Shown here: piece by piece, positions 897 through 17,598 of the stretch
Layout: the number at the start of each line of letters is the position of its first letter
Numbering within the stretch: the first letter of the stretch is position 1
From: a virus
Virus record (IMG/VR): IMGVR_UViG_3300012271_000010
Location: 1 to 64,000 of that record
Length of the DNA: 64,000 nucleotides
Strand: one strand, 5' to 3'
Notes under the pieces: model-generated
The model's database searches: none
The model's input: the letters and a program-made list of their open reading frames with translations, nothing else
What the model was told of the DNA's origin: nothing
Made by a program: the position numbers and the translations under genes

Positions 897-930
897 AATG
901 CTCGCCACACACAACCGAAACGAAACAAGG
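878..930 (+). repeat. 9-bp inverted repeat overlapping a terminator arm
   Basis: CCTTGTTTC at 878-886 is perfectly complementary to GAAACAAGG at 922-930. The right arm shares GG (929-930) with the terminator hairpin that starts at 929, so the two stems exclude each other at that point. This resembles an antiterminator/terminator pair; that function is inferred. Confidence 0.6.
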
Positions 931-952
931 ACTCTTCAAAGAGTCCTTTTTT
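929..952 (+). terminator. Rho-independent terminator
   Basis: GGACTC and GAGTCC form a 6-bp perfect stem around a TTCAAA loop, followed by TTTTTT. It separates the 711-928 leader region from the promoter at 985. Confidence 0.85.
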
Positions 953-984: not shown

Positions 985-1013
985 TTGACAAAAGAGAAGT
1001 GATCTGTTAGGAT
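985..1013 (+). promoter_or_regulatory. Sigma70-type promoter with extended -10 (P1)
   Basis: TTGACA (985-990), a 17-bp spacer and TAGGAT (1008-1013) with TG one base upstream of the -10. The expected start at about 1020 lies just ahead of the tRNA-Thr/tmRNA cluster. It matches P5 at 8132 closely (CTTGACA ... TGTTAGGATA). Confidence 0.85.
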
Positions 1014-1034: not shown

Positions 1035-1119
1035 GCCGGGTTCGTATAGTGGACAATTACACCTGTTTTGTAATCAGGCGGCTCGACCTACGAGAGTTCG
1101 AATCTCTCACTCGGCTCCA
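1035..1119 (+). tRNA. tRNA-Thr(TGT), long variable region
   Basis: Acceptor GCCGGGT pairs with ACTCGGC (one wobble) and CCA is encoded. The T arm is GAGAG-TTCGAAT-CTCTC. Anticodon loop TTTGTAA gives TGT; the innermost anticodon-stem pair is a T-T mismatch. The variable region is 13 nt, not the usual 4-5 nt of a class I tRNA. Reading GTA (Tyr) would need a shifted stem, so Thr is preferred. Confidence 0.8.
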
Positions 1120-1126
1120 ATTTTTT

Positions 1127-1424
1127 GGGGAATCTATGGAATCGATAAAGCAAGGAGGATAATTTACACAAGGAAGCCAGCCAACGAATGCTTTGATCAG
1201 CGTTGGAAAAAATAACTGCAAACGATAACATCGAACAGTTCGCTCCTATTGCTCTAGCAGCGTAGAAAGCCGGGTGTCAACTACCTCGGAACAGAAAGTT
1301 GAGAAAAGTGAGTGCGAGAAGAAAGAAAGAAGGATTTCAATATCCTAAAAATTGAATAACCTTGTAAGAAAGTAAATTATAGAAATTGTTTTAGACACCG
1401 GTTCGAATCCGGTATTCTCCACCA
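1127..1424 (+). ncRNA. ssrA: Transfer-messenger RNA (tmRNA)
   Basis: The 5' end GGGGAAT pairs with ATTCTCC near the 3' end, with a G3-U70 wobble, the alanyl-tRNA synthetase identity element of tmRNA. The T arm is ACCGG-TTCGAAT-CCGGT, followed by A and CCA. The 5' domain has the TATGGAATCGAT block typical of tmRNA. The tag reading frame runs from GCA at 1218 to TAG at 1263-1265 and encodes ANDNIEQFAPIALAA, ending in the ALAA type of degradation tail. At 298 nt the gene is shorter than the 363-nt E. coli form. tmRNA with SmpB rescues stalled ribosomes and tags the nascent chain for proteolysis. No smpB gene is visible here, so host SmpB would be needed. Confidence 0.95.
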
Positions 1425-1503
1425 GGGCATAGCCCACGGGGTCACCGTAAGGTGGCTGACTGATTGCCGGATAAATCAGGATAAATAAGCCGGTCCTTGT
1501 TGT
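1425..1503 (+). ncRNA. Structured spacer between tmRNA and tRNA-Val
   Basis: Directly after the tmRNA CCA there are three hairpins in a row: GGGC-ATA-GCCC; GTCACC/GGTGGC capped by a GTAA (GNRA-type) tetraloop; and CTGATT/AATCAG. A short direct repeat, GGATAAAT twice with 2 nt between, lies at the last hairpin. No T arm or reading frame is present. It may be a small structured RNA or a processing spacer; no known family was recognised. Confidence 0.45.
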
Positions 1504-1579
1504 GCAGGATTAACTGAGATGGTTTTAGTGCTACCCTTACATGGTAGAAACGGGGGTTCGAATCCCTCATCCTGTACCA
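1504..1579 (+). tRNA. tRNA-Val(TAC)
   Basis: Acceptor GCAGGAT/ATCCTGT has a G1-U72 wobble. The anticodon arm CTACC-CTTACAT-GGTAG gives TAC; the T arm is GGGGG-TTCGAAT-CCCTC; ACCA is encoded. Length 76 nt. Confidence 0.93.
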
Positions 1580-1590
1580 GAGTGGATATT

Positions 1591-1619
1591 CGGCGGGACT
1601 GACTATCGTCCGGTTTTTT
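1591..1619 (+). terminator. Probable terminator after tRNA-Val
   Basis: GGAC at 1596-1599 pairs with GTCC at 1608-1611 around an 8-nt loop, followed by GG and six T residues. The stem is short, so strength is uncertain. Confidence 0.45.
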
Positions 1620-1661
1620 GTTTAGTCAACAGAGAATCCGAAACCACGCGTTTTAAAAAGG

Positions 1662-1709: not shown

Positions 1710-1961
1710 ATGAAAAGATGGTTAGTGACAGGAACGAATGAAAATGGTTTTATCTGGGTACTTGAATTTGTTGGCGACGAAAAACCAAATCGCGGGAGGA
1801 TAAATCACGCGTTTGCTTCGGAATATCCAGAACAATGGGAATTCGAACCAGAGATTAGAAAAATAAAAATTCGTGAGTTTACCGACGCCCCACCACACGC
1901 CACTCTTGGTCTTTCGCTTAAAAAAGGATTTAATTTAAATGGAGAAGAAATAGAATATTAA
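1710..1961 (+). CDS. Hypothetical 83-residue protein
   Basis: Small, soluble, mixed-charge protein (MKRWLVTGTNENGF at the N terminus). No motif was recognised. It has its own promoter (P2) and an AAAGG ribosome site, and is followed 5 bases later by tRNA-Asp, so gene and tRNA probably share a transcript. Coding is supported by the promoter-start geometry and the uninterrupted frame; function is unknown. Confidence 0.75.
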   Translation: MKRWLVTGTNENGFIWVLEFVGDEKPNRGRINHAFASEYPEQWEFEPEIRKIKIREFTDAPPHATLGLSLKKGFNLNGEEIEY

Positions 1962-1966
1962 AATAC

Positions 1967-2042
1967 GGTTATGAGTTGCGGATGGCGAGCAGCTTCATTG
2001 TCAATGAAATGGTAGTCGGTTCGATTCCGACCATGACCGCCA
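1967..2042 (+). tRNA. tRNA-Asp(GTC)
   Basis: Acceptor GGTTATG/CATGACC; anticodon loop TTGTCAA gives GTC; T arm GTCGG-TTCGATT-CCGAC; discriminator G, as expected for Asp; CCA encoded. Length 76 nt. Confidence 0.93.
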
Positions 2043-2066
2043 GTCGTCCTGTCAACTCTGATATAT

Positions 2067-2087
2067 ATCATATTTAGAAAATATGAT
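2067..2087 (+). repeat. 9-bp AT-rich hairpin
   Basis: ATCATATTT and AAATATGAT form a perfect 9-bp stem with an AGA loop. No T-run follows, so it is not a clear terminator. It lies just upstream of the multi-helix RNA at 2110. Confidence 0.55.
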
Positions 2088-2109
2088 TAAGAGATTTTGT
2101 AAAAAGACA

Positions 2110-2256
2110 GGACAGGTAAAGAAGGTTCGCGACAGTCTTAGTAAGACGAAACGAAAGTCAGGAAAAGACTGCCTTCTTTACCAGGGACACGATGTAACAA
2201 CCGCCAAGTGGTGTGTCCTGGGTAATGCTAGTAGTTACAGAAATATGAGTCTGTCC
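2110..2256 (+). ncRNA. Multi-helix structured RNA, family unknown
   Basis: Outer helix GGACAG (2110-2115) with CTGTCC (2251-2256) encloses three arms in series. The first is GTAAAGAAGG (2116-2125) with CCTTCTTTAC (2172-2181), continued after a one-sided 7-nt bulge by CAGTCTT (2133-2139) with AAGACTG (2165-2171). The second is CAGGGACAC (2182-2190) with GTGTCCTG (2213-2220), one bulged G. The third is GTAA/TTAC (2222-2238). The first arm abuts the second without a gap, as expected for stacked helices in a four-way junction. It is not recognisable as RNase P, 6S or a group I intron. It sits between tRNA-Asp and a tRNA-like gene. The open frame across it is not convincing as protein. Confidence 0.6.
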
Positions 2257-2265
2257 AAATTGGGG

Positions 2266-2342
2266 GCGCCGCACGCATGCAGCGGTAGGAGCTTTCGAAT
2301 ACTCCATGGTTAAGTTAGGTTCGAATCCTAACAGGCGCACCA
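2266..2342 (+). tRNA. Imperfect tRNA-like gene, possibly tRNA-Arg(TCG)
   Basis: The 77-nt element has a perfect T arm (TTAGG-TTCGAAT-CCTAA), five acceptor pairs (GCGCC with GGCGC), ACCA and a D-loop-like AGCGGTA. The last two acceptor pairs fail, the D stem is poor, and the anticodon stem GGAG/CTCC holds a 10-nt loop containing TTTCGAA. TCG (Arg) is the best anticodon reading but is not secure. Confidence 0.5.
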
Positions 2343-2421
2343 GAGGCAGAAATATAGGTTCGAATCCTGTTGTCAACATTGTGTTGACCTCGTCTAACTG
2401 GTCAGGACGCTGCCGTTTTTT
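2343..2421 (+). ncRNA. Circularly permuted tRNA-like RNA ending in a T-run
   Basis: Parts of a tRNA occur in permuted order. First comes a 3' half: anticodon-stem strand GGCAG (2345-2349), variable AAAT, T arm ATAGG-TTCGAAT-CCTGT, acceptor strand TGTCAAC (2371-2377), A. Then TTGT. Then a 5' half: GTTGACC (2383-2389), TC, D arm GTCT-AACTGGTCA-GGAC, G, CTGCC (2410-2414). GGCAG pairs with CTGCC (5 of 5) and the acceptor strands pair 6 of 7. The permuted molecule is closed by the anticodon stem and followed by GTTTTTT, so the whole fold could act as an intrinsic terminator. No intact anticodon loop is encoded. Alternatives are a relic of a tandem duplication, or a permuted tRNA needing ligation. 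Confidence 0.7.
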
Positions 2422-5384: not shown

Positions 5385-6314
5385 ATGTCGAAATCGTACA
5401 AACTTGTTCTATCTGGGTCTGGTACTCGTTACCCATGTTTTATTGGAGCGGTAAAACGTCTCCTGGAAGAAGGTCTTGAAATAGAAGAGGTTTGTGGGAC
5501 CAGCGGCGGTGGAATTATTGCCGCTGGTCTTGGATGGAAGTATGATAAAGAAAATCCTCTTGATTCTATTAAATTTTTAGAAGATATGGCATTATCTCTT
5601 TTACCATCTGATTTGTTAGACCCTCATTGGTTTGATTTTGCTCTATCTTTTCGATGGAAGAATCTTTTCCACGGATATAACTTCAGTCCTCTGAATTTGT
5701 TTAGAAAAAATAAAGACGTCCTTACTCTTGATCCGAAGAAAATGGTTTTGACGAGAAACACTAACGGAATGTTTAAGGGTAATAAAATTCTTAAAGTTTT
5801 AGAGAAATCGCTGCCAGAAGATCTTGAATTGAAAATTCCAGTTGTTATTACAACATTCAATAACAACTGGAGAGTGGTAGATTTTTGGAAAAGAGAGAAA
5901 GGTAACACTGGTGATTTAGCAAAATTAGTTAGAGCTACTCTTTCTCTACCGATAATTTTTGATCCTGTTATGATTGAAGGAGACTTACATTCTGACGGTG
6001 GAAATATTGCTAATTTCCCACTTGATGTTTTTGGACGAGATGCTAAAGTTATTGGGTTGACATTCGAAGGAATGAATCCAACACGAGTAGTAATTGATGA
6101 TAAACTTGATATTGCTGGAGCCAATCTAGACGGTATGATGAACGCGTCAATGGAAGAAGATATCCACGACGCCGGTCCAAACGCCCATGTTTGTCAGATA
6201 CGCACTAGACACACTGGTCTCAACCTTATGATGACTCCTGCCGACGTCGCAGAACAAATACTCGACGGATATGACAGTGTGTCCCGGTGGCTCAAAGAAA
6301 ATCCAGATCTGTAA
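5385..6314 (+). CDS. Patatin-like phospholipase
   Basis: 309 residues. The N terminus LVLSGSGTRYPCFIGAV matches the glycine-rich oxyanion region, CGTSGGGIIAAGL (about residues 37-49) is the GxSxG nucleophile elbow, and HSDGGNIANFP (about 202-212) supplies the DG half of the Ser-Asp dyad. Family members hydrolyse acyl chains of phospholipids. No signal peptide is seen, so it should act in the cytoplasm, on the inner leaflet, or after lysis. It follows a small gene by three bases. In a phage it might remodel membranes or help lysis; that is inference. Cap-type anti-defence or effector roles are alternatives. Confidence 0.85.
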   Translation: MSKSYKLVLSGSGTRYPCFIGAVKRLLEEGLEIEEVCGTSGGGIIAAGLGWKYDKENPLDSIKFLEDMALSLLPSDLLDPHWFDFALSFRWKNLFHGYNFSPLNLFRKNKDVLTLDPKKMVLTRNTNGMFKGNKILKVLEKSLPEDLELKIPVVITTFNNNWRVVDFWKREKGNTGDLAKLVRATLSLPIIFDPVMIEGDLHSDGGNIANFPLDVFGRDAKVIGLTFEGMNPTRVVIDDKLDIAGANLDGMMNASMEEDIHDAGPNAHVCQIRTRHTGLNLMMTPADVAEQILDGYDSVSRWLKENPDL

Positions 6315-16006: not shown

Positions 16007-16468
16007 ATGAATATTTTTGTTCTAGATTCAGATCCTGTTAAGGCGGCAGAATATCAATGTGATAAACATGTCGTTAAGATGATTTTAGAAACTGCACAAA
16101 TGCTGTGTACTGCAATACATGAGACTGGTGGAAATGCACATTATAAATCAACACATCGAAATCACCCTTGTACGATATGGGCTAGAAAAAGCAAAGGAAA
16201 CTTTGCATGGTTGAAAACCCACGGTTTAGCTTTGTGTAAAGAATATAATAAAAGATATGGGAAGGTTCACAAATCGCAAGCAGTGATAGAAGAATGTCTA
16301 GACCTAACTATTCCAGATGGATGTAAGACTAACTTTGCTCTTGCAATGCCTGACTATTGTAAGGTTGATAACGTGGTCGATTCTTATAGGAACTACTATT
16401 TAAAAGAGAAATCTAACATTGCAAAATGGAAACTAGGCAACAAGCCGGATTGGTTCTTAATCGAATAA
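16007..16468 (+). CDS. Conserved phage protein of unknown function
   Basis: 153 residues: MNIFVLDSDPVKAAEYQCDK, HVVKMILETAQMLC, THRNHPCTIWARKS, LAMPDYCK, SYRNYYLKEK and a C-terminal KPDWFLIE. I recognise this motif order as a protein family widely conserved in tailed phages and some bacteria, but its function is not established to my knowledge. Several His/Cys/Asp residues are conserved-looking and could bind metal. The ATG follows AAATAAAAC, with no strong ribosome site. A hairpin with a T-rich tail lies about 33 bases after the stop. Confidence 0.75.
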   Translation: MNIFVLDSDPVKAAEYQCDKHVVKMILETAQMLCTAIHETGGNAHYKSTHRNHPCTIWARKSKGNFAWLKTHGLALCKEYNKRYGKVHKSQAVIEECLDLTIPDGCKTNFALAMPDYCKVDNVVDSYRNYYLKEKSNIAKWKLGNKPDWFLIE

Positions 16469-16472
16469 AATA

Positions 16473-16868
16473 TTGATTAAAACTTTGTCACATTTAATAA
16501 GCGAGCATCCACAGTTCAGTTTCGAACCAGGGATGCTCGTTTTATTTCACAATACTTTAGAAAAGACGATAAAGTTACGGATTAAGAGCCACGACCAGGC
16601 ACGACTTTGGAAGTTGGCAGATGAGCACCTACAACCTGTGCTCGATGATTACAGTACAGCTGGAGTCCTCTTACACATACTTCAGACGACGATCGGAGAA
16701 GGCTGTGAGATTGAACTGGAACGTAAAGTTTGGTTTTTCACTCCAACGTGGTCGATCAAAATAAAGAGATATTTTATAAAAGAAGAGGACAGTATACTAG
16801 GAAATGTTCTAGCGACTGTCCTCTTGAAGTTGTGGGATGAAAGAAAGTTAGAAAGAAGCAACTCCTAA
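16473..16868 (+). CDS. Hypothetical 131-residue protein, TTG start, many inverted repeats
   Basis: The frame opens with TTG and no good ribosome site (an ATG 60 bases on is an alternative). The product is mixed helix/strand (LWKLADEHLQPVLDDYSTAG, KVWFFTPTWSIKIKRYFI). The DNA contains three perfect inverted repeats: CGAGCATCC/GGATGCTCG (16502-16539), GAGCAC/GTGCTC (16623-16643) and AAGAGGACAGT/ACTGTCCTCTT (16783-16826). This is unusual inside a coding region, and the first is followed by TTTTATTT. It may be coding, or partly a structured RNA. Its end overlaps the convergent protease gene. Confidence 0.5.
   Translation: MIKTLSHLISEHPQFSFEPGMLVLFHNTLEKTIKLRIKSHDQARLWKLADEHLQPVLDDYSTAGVLLHILQTTIGEGCEIELERKVWFFTPTWSIKIKRYFIKEEDSILGNVLATVLLKLWDERKLERSNS
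16502..16545 (+). repeat. 9-bp inverted repeat with T-rich tail
   Basis: CGAGCATCC (16502-16510) pairs with GGATGCTCG (16531-16539) around a 20-nt loop containing TTTCGAACC, followed by TTTTATTT. It could terminate transcription from the 16007 gene. Confidence 0.5.
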
Positions 16869-17534
16869 TAAGAATTTGTGAATTTCTTCTAATGGAACCA
16901 TCATACCGATGTTTTCTAAGTCTGGTGAAGCTCTTGAAGTAATTCCGATCACTTCCCAGTCTTTATTGAAAATAGGAGAACCTGAACTTCCTCCTTTGGT
17001 TGGTATAGTGTACAAATCAAATTCAAAATCAAGTGCTGGATGAAGAAATCTTCCTGAATAATATCCTTCAAATTGGAGAACCATGTTTTTACCATGAATT
17101 CCCAAAGGAGCAGATAAGTTGTAAGCTTTGTCGCCTGGTTTGACCATCTCTTTGGCAATGAAACTAAAGTCCCGCCCGATGCGGTTTCTAGATTCAAAAA
17201 CGCACAAATCCGTTACTTTTGGATCAGATACCTTTAATATGTCAATTTCGTAAACTTGTTGTTCTAAATCGATAGCGAAAGATTTACGGGTGTTGTCATC
17301 ACAAACATGTCCAGCTGATAAAATTAAAGTTTTCTCAGCAGAATGATGTATGATTACTCCTGAAGCAGATCCAATTTCAACTTCTTCTTTTTGGAAAACA
17401 AGCTTGACAAAAGAGTCCCGTGCTGCTATAATAGGAGTTATATTGCTGTTAGAGGTTTGTATAGAAGCACAAGACAGAGGGTTCATTAAGAACAAAAAAC
17501 CGAATGTTAGTGCAAAGAATTTTAAGACTTTCAT
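16848..17534 (-). CDS. Trypsin-like serine protease with signal peptide
   Basis: 228 residues from the ATG at 17534 (an upstream ATG adds 15 unlikely residues). MKVLKFFALTFGFLFLMNPLSC is a signal peptide, possibly lipidated at Cys. The chymotrypsin-fold triad is visible: SAGHVCDD (His), VTDLCVFES (Asp) and GGSSGSPIF (Ser), with VIGITSRAS after it. It should act in the periplasm or outside. It is the only clear minus-strand gene in the window and converges on the 16473 frame. It may be a horizontally acquired moron gene; a role in altering the host envelope or rival phages is inference. Confidence 0.9.
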   Translation of the reverse strand: MKVLKFFALTFGFLFLMNPLSCASIQTSNSNITPIIAARDSFVKLVFQKEEVEIGSASGVIIHHSAEKTLILSAGHVCDDNTRKSFAIDLEQQVYEIDILKVSDPKVTDLCVFESRNRIGRDFSFIAKEMVKPGDKAYNLSAPLGIHGKNMVLQFEGYYSGRFLHPALDFEFDLYTIPTKGGSSGSPIFNKDWEVIGITSRASPDLENIGMMVPLEEIHKFLLGVASF

Positions 17535-17598
17535 ATAAGTAACTATGGACCTACTGGTGCGAATCGCCAACGGTCCCATTTAATAATAAGGTAGGTAA

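What the first reader, a model, noticed from the sequence alone, without database searches (positions are those of the whole stretch)
1127..1424. Complete phage-encoded tmRNA with an ALAA-type tag
The ends pair as a tRNA-Ala-like acceptor with the G3-U70 identity wobble, and the internal frame encodes ANDNIEQFAPIALAA. tmRNA in phage genomes is rare. A phage copy could rescue ribosomes stalled by host RNase defences, or redirect tagging.
Basis: partly seen in the sequence, partly recalled or inferred. Interest (0 to 1): 0.78.

Follow-up and report, generated by a model that had tools for sequence, protein, structure and literature searches.

The report
Phage-encoded tmRNA in tRNA cluster
This phage carries its own intact copy of tmRNA, the bacterial RNA that frees stalled ribosomes and tags unfinished proteins for destruction; it is genuine and kept by related phages, but phage tmRNAs are already well documented, so it is a new example of something known.

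Summary
Window 1127-1424 (+) is a complete, one-piece, standard-order tmRNA gene: ARAGORN calls it with tag ANDNIEQFAPIALAA, and Rfam RF00023 matches end to end (79.5 bits, E 3.4e-29, gathering score 47). The acceptor with G3-U, T-arm, helix H2, pseudoknots PK1 and PK2, the resume-codon context and a third H-type pseudoknot are all present. Two related IMG/VR phages (PhoH 72% and 67% identical) carry a tmRNA in the same tRNA cluster with tag ANDNVEQFAPIALAA. Across the three sequences 13 base pairs change on both sides (shuffle mean 4.4). So it is a maintained, folded gene and not a remnant. No SmpB gene was found in the three (partial) records, so host SmpB is presumably used. The tag was not found in the genome contigs of 84,980 species, so it does not point to a host. 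Phage tmRNAs are well known: about 2.3% of phage genomes in a published 2021 survey, 79 unique sequences in the current tmRNA database. The most likely role is a phage-supplied, ordinary trans-translation RNA that goes with the phage's 20 tRNAs. Rescue from RNase-based defence, or redirected tagging, is untested. New member of a known kind; low interest.

The parts
1127..1424 (+). tmRNA (ssrA) gene, one-piece, standard order, encoded CCA
   Evidence: ARAGORN; RF00023 79.5 bits, E 3.4e-29, full length
1127..1133 (+). 5' strand of the acceptor stem, GGGGAAU, including G3 of the G3-U pair
   Evidence: pairs 7/7 with 1414-1420 in all three phages, 3 pairs changed on both sides, G3-U invariant
1414..1424 (+). 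3' strand of the acceptor stem (1414-1420), discriminator A (1421) and CCA (1422-1424)
1397..1413 (+). T-arm, ACCGG UUCGAAU CCGGU
   Evidence: 5/5 paired in three phages, 3 pairs changed on both sides
1146..1173 (+). 5' side of helix H2 (three segments)
   Evidence: pairs with 1360-1393; 4 pairs changed on both sides between relatives
1360..1393 (+). 3' side of helix H2
1174..1206 (+). pseudoknot PK1
   Evidence: AAGC/GCUU and CCAACG/CGUUGG; G003 has CCAACA/UGUUGG, a compensatory change
1213..1214 (+). U and A in the place of E. coli U85 and A86, 5 and 4 nt before the resume codon
   Evidence: invariant in the three phages and in Streptomyces phage Enygma; A86 is needed for activity in E. coli (PMC2481249)
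1218..1265 (+). tag reading frame: GCA resume codon to UAG, ANDNIEQFAPIALAA
   Evidence: relatives encode ANDNVEQFAPIALAA, and the last 33 nt (EQFAPIALAA*) are identical in all three
1270..1302 (+). pseudoknot PK2
   Evidence: conserved in three phages; U-A to C-G change in stem 1
1331..1356 (+). third H-type pseudoknot (PK3/PK4 position), not shared by the relatives
   Evidence: AGGAU/AUCCU and UUCAAU/AUUGAA; 4 of 2000 shuffles form one as large
985..1013 (+). likely sigma-70 promoter TTGACA-17-TAGGAT with TG before the -10, ahead of tRNA-Thr and the tmRNA
   Evidence: consensus match only, 3 found against 2.4 expected by chance, although this one scores 10 of 12
927..948 (+). terminator-like hairpin with T-run that separates the unit from the genes upstream
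1035..1119 (+). tRNA-Thr(TGT), upstream neighbour
   Evidence: in the relatives ARAGORN calls it in G002, and in G003 similar sequence lies there but is not called
1504..1579 (+). tRNA-Val(TAC), downstream neighbour
   Evidence: same neighbour in G002 and G003

Best explanation
It is a functional, phage-encoded tmRNA that works in ordinary trans-translation. Host alanyl-tRNA synthetase charges it through the G3-U acceptor; host SmpB delivers it to ribosomes stalled at the end of an mRNA without a stop codon; the ribosome resumes at GCA, adds the tag ANDNIEQFAPIALAA and ends at UAG; and the ALAA end sends the tagged protein to host proteases. The phage carries it, together with 20 tRNAs, to keep translation going during infection when host RNA is being lost. 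Shown: gene identity, fold, tag frame, conservation between phages, placement in the tRNA cluster. Inferred: expression, charging, use of host SmpB, tagging, protein turnover and benefit to the phage.
For: ARAGORN and a full-length RF00023 match. Related phages G002 and G003 carry it beside the same tRNA-Val and downstream of tRNA-Thr or Thr-like sequence. 92% of structure cells are paired (shuffle mean 86.1, 0/500 as high) and 13 pairs change on both sides (shuffle mean 4.4, 0/500); slid structures give 35-47% and 0-1. The tag is kept with a single I/V change and otherwise only synonymous changes. The U85/A86 equivalents are invariant. A promoter-like site lies ahead. No SmpB was found in the records. 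A cluster of 20 tRNAs surrounds it.
Against: No expression data. The host is unknown, so host SmpB and protease compatibility are assumed. The RF00023 score is lower than in the relatives (79.5 against 106.3 and 99.4). The region between PK2 and H2 is reduced to a purine-rich linker plus one short pseudoknot. Only three sequences support the covariation.
Confidence: 0.85

Rival explanations
1. Counter-defence: the tmRNA is kept chiefly to recycle ribosomes stalled when host RNase or toxin defences cut mRNA during infection.
For: The mechanism fits what tmRNA does in general; the gene sits in a tRNA cluster, and phage tRNAs are often explained as replacing cut tRNAs (established idea; nothing measured here).
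Confidence: 0.25
2. Redirected tagging: the 15-residue tag differs from the host's and sends tagged proteins to other adaptors or proteases, or spares them.
For: The tag has no match in the genome contigs of 84,980 species, and EQFAPI is kept between phages.
Against: The tag keeps AND at the start and ALAA at the end, as in ordinary degradation tags. Absence of a genome match may only mean that the host is not held. DNA-level identity of the 3' half may reflect RNA structure rather than the peptide.
Confidence: 0.1
3. Decoy: it binds up SmpB and inhibits host trans-translation, as reported for the tRNA-like-domain-only form from mycobacteriophage DS6A.
For: Such a phage form exists and inhibits the host tmRNA when expressed in E. 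coli (PMC11915505; PMC4131195).
Against: Here the tag frame, resume-codon context, PK1 and PK2 are all kept, which a decoy would not need.
Confidence: 0.05
4. Non-functional remnant picked up from a host by imprecise excision.
For: Fragments of ssrA in prophages are known (cited in PMC9004378).
Against: Complete gene, in three phages at the same place, with compensatory changes; baseplate genes and a tRNA cluster, and no integrase among the proteins scanned (not every gene was scanned).
Confidence: 0.02

Closest known systems
tmRNA, Rfam RF00023 (one-piece bacterial ssrA)
   Same: Acceptor with G3-U and CCA, T-arm, H2, PK1, resume codon, ALAA tag with stop, PK2
   Different: 298 nt against a 374-position model; one short pseudoknot on a purine-rich linker in place of the remaining pseudoknots; in a phage; tag not found in the genomes held
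tmRNA of Streptomyces phages of subcluster BE1 (Karimacvirus, e.g. Enygma, PP358745.1)
   Same: Phage-encoded, in a tRNA cluster, about 280 nt, similar PK2 (GGGUGNCAACUNCCUNGGAACAGAAAGUUG)
   Different: Tag ANSNVASAYALAA; PK1 and H2 sequences differ; phage otherwise not closely similar
Two-piece tmRNA of OM43 phage Melnitz and marine relatives (PMC9004378)
   Same: Phage-encoded tmRNA, proposed to maintain host translation or tag host proteins
   Different: Permuted, two-piece, under a glutamine riboswitch; this one is one-piece in standard order
tmRNAs of mycobacteriophages Bxz1, Cali, Catera, Wildcat and Bacillus phage G (PMC4131195)
   Same: Phage-encoded ssrA genes
   Different: Different phages and hosts; sequences not compared here

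Membership tests
tmRNA (RF00023) | Score above the curated cut-off over the whole model | tested here: met
   79.5 bits against 47, model 1-374 of 374
tmRNA (RF00023) | tRNA-like domain: acceptor with G3-U, T-arm, CCA | tested here: met
   7/7 and 5/5 pairs, G-U invariant, 6 pairs changed on both sides
tmRNA (RF00023) | Helix H2 joining the two domains | tested here: met
   22 pairs in three segments, 4 changed on both sides
tmRNA (RF00023) | PK1 upstream of the tag frame | tested here: met
tmRNA (RF00023) | Resume codon with conserved U85 and A86 equivalents | tested here: met
   U87 and A88 of the gene invariant in four phages; role of A86 from PMC2481249
tmRNA (RF00023) | Short tag frame ending in a degradation signal and a stop codon | tested here: met
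   ANDNIEQFAPIALAA then UAG
tmRNA (RF00023) | Pseudoknots PK2 to PK4 downstream of the tag (number varies in the family) | tested here: met
   PK2 conserved; one further pseudoknot specific to this phage; a fourth was not found
tmRNA (RF00023) | Charging with alanine, SmpB binding and tagging of stalled proteins | not testable with these tools
   needs an experiment; no SmpB gene in the phage records
Two-piece (permuted) tmRNA (RF04321) | Permuted order of the two domains | tested here: not met
   Standard order; RF04321 only 29.8 bits against a cut-off of 47

The most novel reading that the evidence does not exclude
The phage tag is a functional departure from the host tag: its EQFAPI centre, kept between phages and not found in the genomes held, changes which adaptor or protease handles rescued proteins, so that infection rewires the quality control of stalled proteins.
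Probability: 0.08. Interest if true: 0.55.

Novelty: new member of a known kind. Interest (0 to 1): 0.2.

Why it matters
It adds a well-supported one-piece tmRNA, with a tag not seen in the genomes held, from a group of uncultured phages with large tRNA clusters. Conservation between relatives supports the view that phages keep tmRNA for use. It does not change what is known about tmRNA.

Tried and rejected
Host by tag: a degenerate tag pattern in 84,980 species genomes gave nothing. A looser pattern for any 15-residue ANDN-7-ALAA tag gave 18 loci, mostly alphaproteobacterial (Rickettsia and relatives, often permuted tmRNAs), none with EQFAPI. Two viral-contig tag patterns found nothing; the first demanded Ile where the relatives have Val. 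Nucleotide search of phage records with the first 12 kb gave no match. The closest proteins pointed at no single host: glycosyltransferase to Streptomyces phages at about 30%, PhoH to many hosts at under 40%. A plain minimum-energy fold does not show the pseudoknots, which is expected since that method excludes them. A phage-only tmRNA lineage based on the PK2 motif GGAACAGAAAGUUG was considered and dropped, since alphaproteobacterial tmRNAs carry a similar CGGGCAACAGAAA motif.

Full report
What is there. ARAGORN finds a tmRNA at 1127-1424 on the + strand with tag ANDNIEQFAPIALAA. The Rfam tmRNA model RF00023 matches it over all 374 positions with 79.5 bits, E 3.4e-29, against a curated cut-off of 47. 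The permuted, two-piece model RF04321 reaches only 29.8 bits, so this is a one-piece gene in the standard order.

Anatomy. The acceptor GGGGAAU/AUUCUCC pairs over seven positions with G3-U in the third, followed by A and an encoded CCA; the T-arm is ACCGG-UUCGAAU-CCGGU. Helix H2 pairs in three segments. PK1 is AAGC/GCUU with CCAACG/CGUUGG. The tag frame starts at GCA (1218) and ends with UAG (1263-1265). U and A stand 5 and 4 bases before the resume codon, as U85 and A86 do in E. coli; in E. coli A86 is needed for activity and frame choice (PMC2481249). PK2 is CCGGGU/ACCU-C-GG with UCAACU/AGUUGA. A purine-rich linker follows, and then a compact H-type pseudoknot, AGGAU/AUCCU with UUCAAU/AUUGAA; only 4 of 2000 shuffles of that segment form a pseudoknot of that size. 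A TTGACA-17-TAGGAT site (10 of 12 consensus positions, TG before the second hexamer) and, ahead of it, a terminator-like hairpin frame a unit that begins with tRNA-Thr; such consensus matches are weak evidence by themselves.

Related phages. The window is 64,000 of 72,110 bases of a virus record. It has baseplate wedge, SbcC/SbcD-like, primase, RuvC-like, PhoH and glycosyltransferase genes, which fits a contractile-tailed phage. With the PhoH protein as query, 11 related loci were found in IMG/VR. The two records most alike beyond one short near-identical contig carry tmRNAs at 106.3 and 99.4 bits: G002 (IMGVR_UViG_3300022226_000011, PhoH 72% identical) and G003 (IMGVR_UViG_3300009481_000013, 67%). 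Both have tag ANDNVEQFAPIALAA and tRNA-Val(TAC) downstream; tRNA-Thr(TGT) is called upstream in G002, and G003 has similar sequence there that ARAGORN does not call. G002 has a further 93 nt between PK2 and H2. More distant PhoH relatives have no tmRNA in the records held, but those are fragments.

Is it maintained? On the alignment of the three sequences, 92.0% of cells in the proposed structure are paired against 86.1% in shuffles, and 13 pairs change on both sides against 4.4 (0 of 500 shuffles as high for either). Sliding the partners by 1-3 columns drops pairing to 35-47% and double changes to 0 or 1. Changes on both sides occur in the acceptor, T-arm, H2, PK1 and PK2. Nearly all failures fall in the third pseudoknot, which is specific to the window. 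The tag differs by one Ile/Val exchange and by synonymous changes; the last 33 nt of the frame are identical in all three, which may reflect both the peptide and RNA structure. Three sequences are few, but the result is clear for a gene whose fold was known beforehand.

How it most likely works. Host alanyl-tRNA synthetase and SmpB would serve it: no SmpB was found in the three partial phage records. It would release ribosomes stuck on mRNA without a stop codon and add a tag ending in ALAA, the usual signal for ClpXP-type proteases (general knowledge of tmRNA). Its place in a cluster of 20 tRNAs suggests general support of translation. That it counters RNase-based defence is a reasonable guess without evidence here. 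That the tag redirects proteins is possible but less likely, since AND and ALAA are both kept. A decoy role such as that of the domain-only RNA of phage DS6A (PMC11915505; PMC4131195) does not fit a gene that keeps its tag frame.

The host. A degenerate search for the tag in 84,980 species genomes found nothing, and a looser search found only other tags, mostly of Rickettsia and other Alphaproteobacteria. The tag therefore does not name a host, and origin from a host cannot be traced. No close relative is in the annotated phage collection.

What is known. Phage tmRNAs have been described for years: mycobacteriophages and Bacillus phage G (PMC4131195); 402 of 18,146 phage genomes, 133 unique forms, in a 2021 survey (PMC9004378); 79 unique phage entries in the current database (PMC11915505); Bradyrhizobium elkanii phages (PMC12656738); and Streptomyces BE1 phages with tag ANSNVASAYALAA. 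This is a new member of that known kind. What is specific is the tag and the reduced 3' pseudoknot region.

In passing, the same intergenic region holds a minimal HDV-like ribozyme candidate (2184-2250) and an unnamed structured element (1580-1650), both shared by the two relatives. These may deserve more attention than the tmRNA and are listed separately.

Noticed in passing
window 2184-2250 (+); L018 2362-2429; L019 2253-2320: Minimal HDV-like (theta-type) self-cleaving ribozyme candidate in all three phages: RF02682 at 21.9 bits (window) and 24.5 bits (L018), below the cut-off of 44; L019 by eye. P1 GGGACAC/GUGUCCU becomes GGGAUAC/GUAUCCU in G003, P3 ACC/GGU becomes GCC/GGC in G002, P2 differs but pairs in each. 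Theta ribozymes were reported mainly from gut phages, next to tRNAs (PMC10879173). Outside these phages a pattern search of IMG/VR found none.
   Followed up: partly
window 2113-2183 (+): The RNA just upstream of the ribozyme is not a recognised tRNA: it closes with an 11-bp helix GGUAAAGAAGG/CCUUCUUUACC plus one A, and the relatives have a closing helix of different sequence at the same place (read by eye). A possible small RNA with a ribozyme-made 3' end.
   Followed up: no
window 1580-1650 (+); L018 2017-2088; L019 1929-2003: Conserved structured element just after tRNA-Val: GGAY[UGACUA]UCGUCC ... UAGUCA looks like a pseudoknot inside an outer helix whose sequence differs but pairs in each phage. 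No Rfam match. Other IMG/VR hits to its core are not beside any called tRNA, and the two whose context was printed do not resemble the element.
   Followed up: partly
L061 260-682 (-) and L063 about 1717-2184 (-): Other viral contigs encode tmRNAs with long, near-identical 27-residue tags: ADKTSRQEIGASIINMAFANAPVALAA (ARAGORN) and AETKSRQEIGASIINMAFANAPVALAA (read by eye; RF00023 50.9 bits).
   Followed up: no
L064 546-988 (-): tmRNA missed by ARAGORN but found by RF00023 (82.7 bits); by eye the tag would be GENPFFILAGLVPQKEAEVALAVA, 24 residues, starting with GEN as in Bacteroidota tags (the latter from memory).
   Followed up: no
window 1425-1503 (+): The stretch between the tmRNA CCA and tRNA-Val shares a short pattern with the relatives (G-G-YRWAGCC ... 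GGCTKGAC and a hairpin); role unknown, perhaps 3' processing.
   Followed up: no
window 2262-2343 (+): tRNA-like sequence not called by ARAGORN or Rfam, with T-arm TTAGG-TTCGAAT-CCTAA and CCA.
   Followed up: no
window 5385-6314 (+), 16848-17579 (-), 16007-16468 (+): Patatin-like phospholipase, trypsin-like protease on the opposite strand to its neighbours, and pyrimidine-dimer glycosylase.
   Followed up: no
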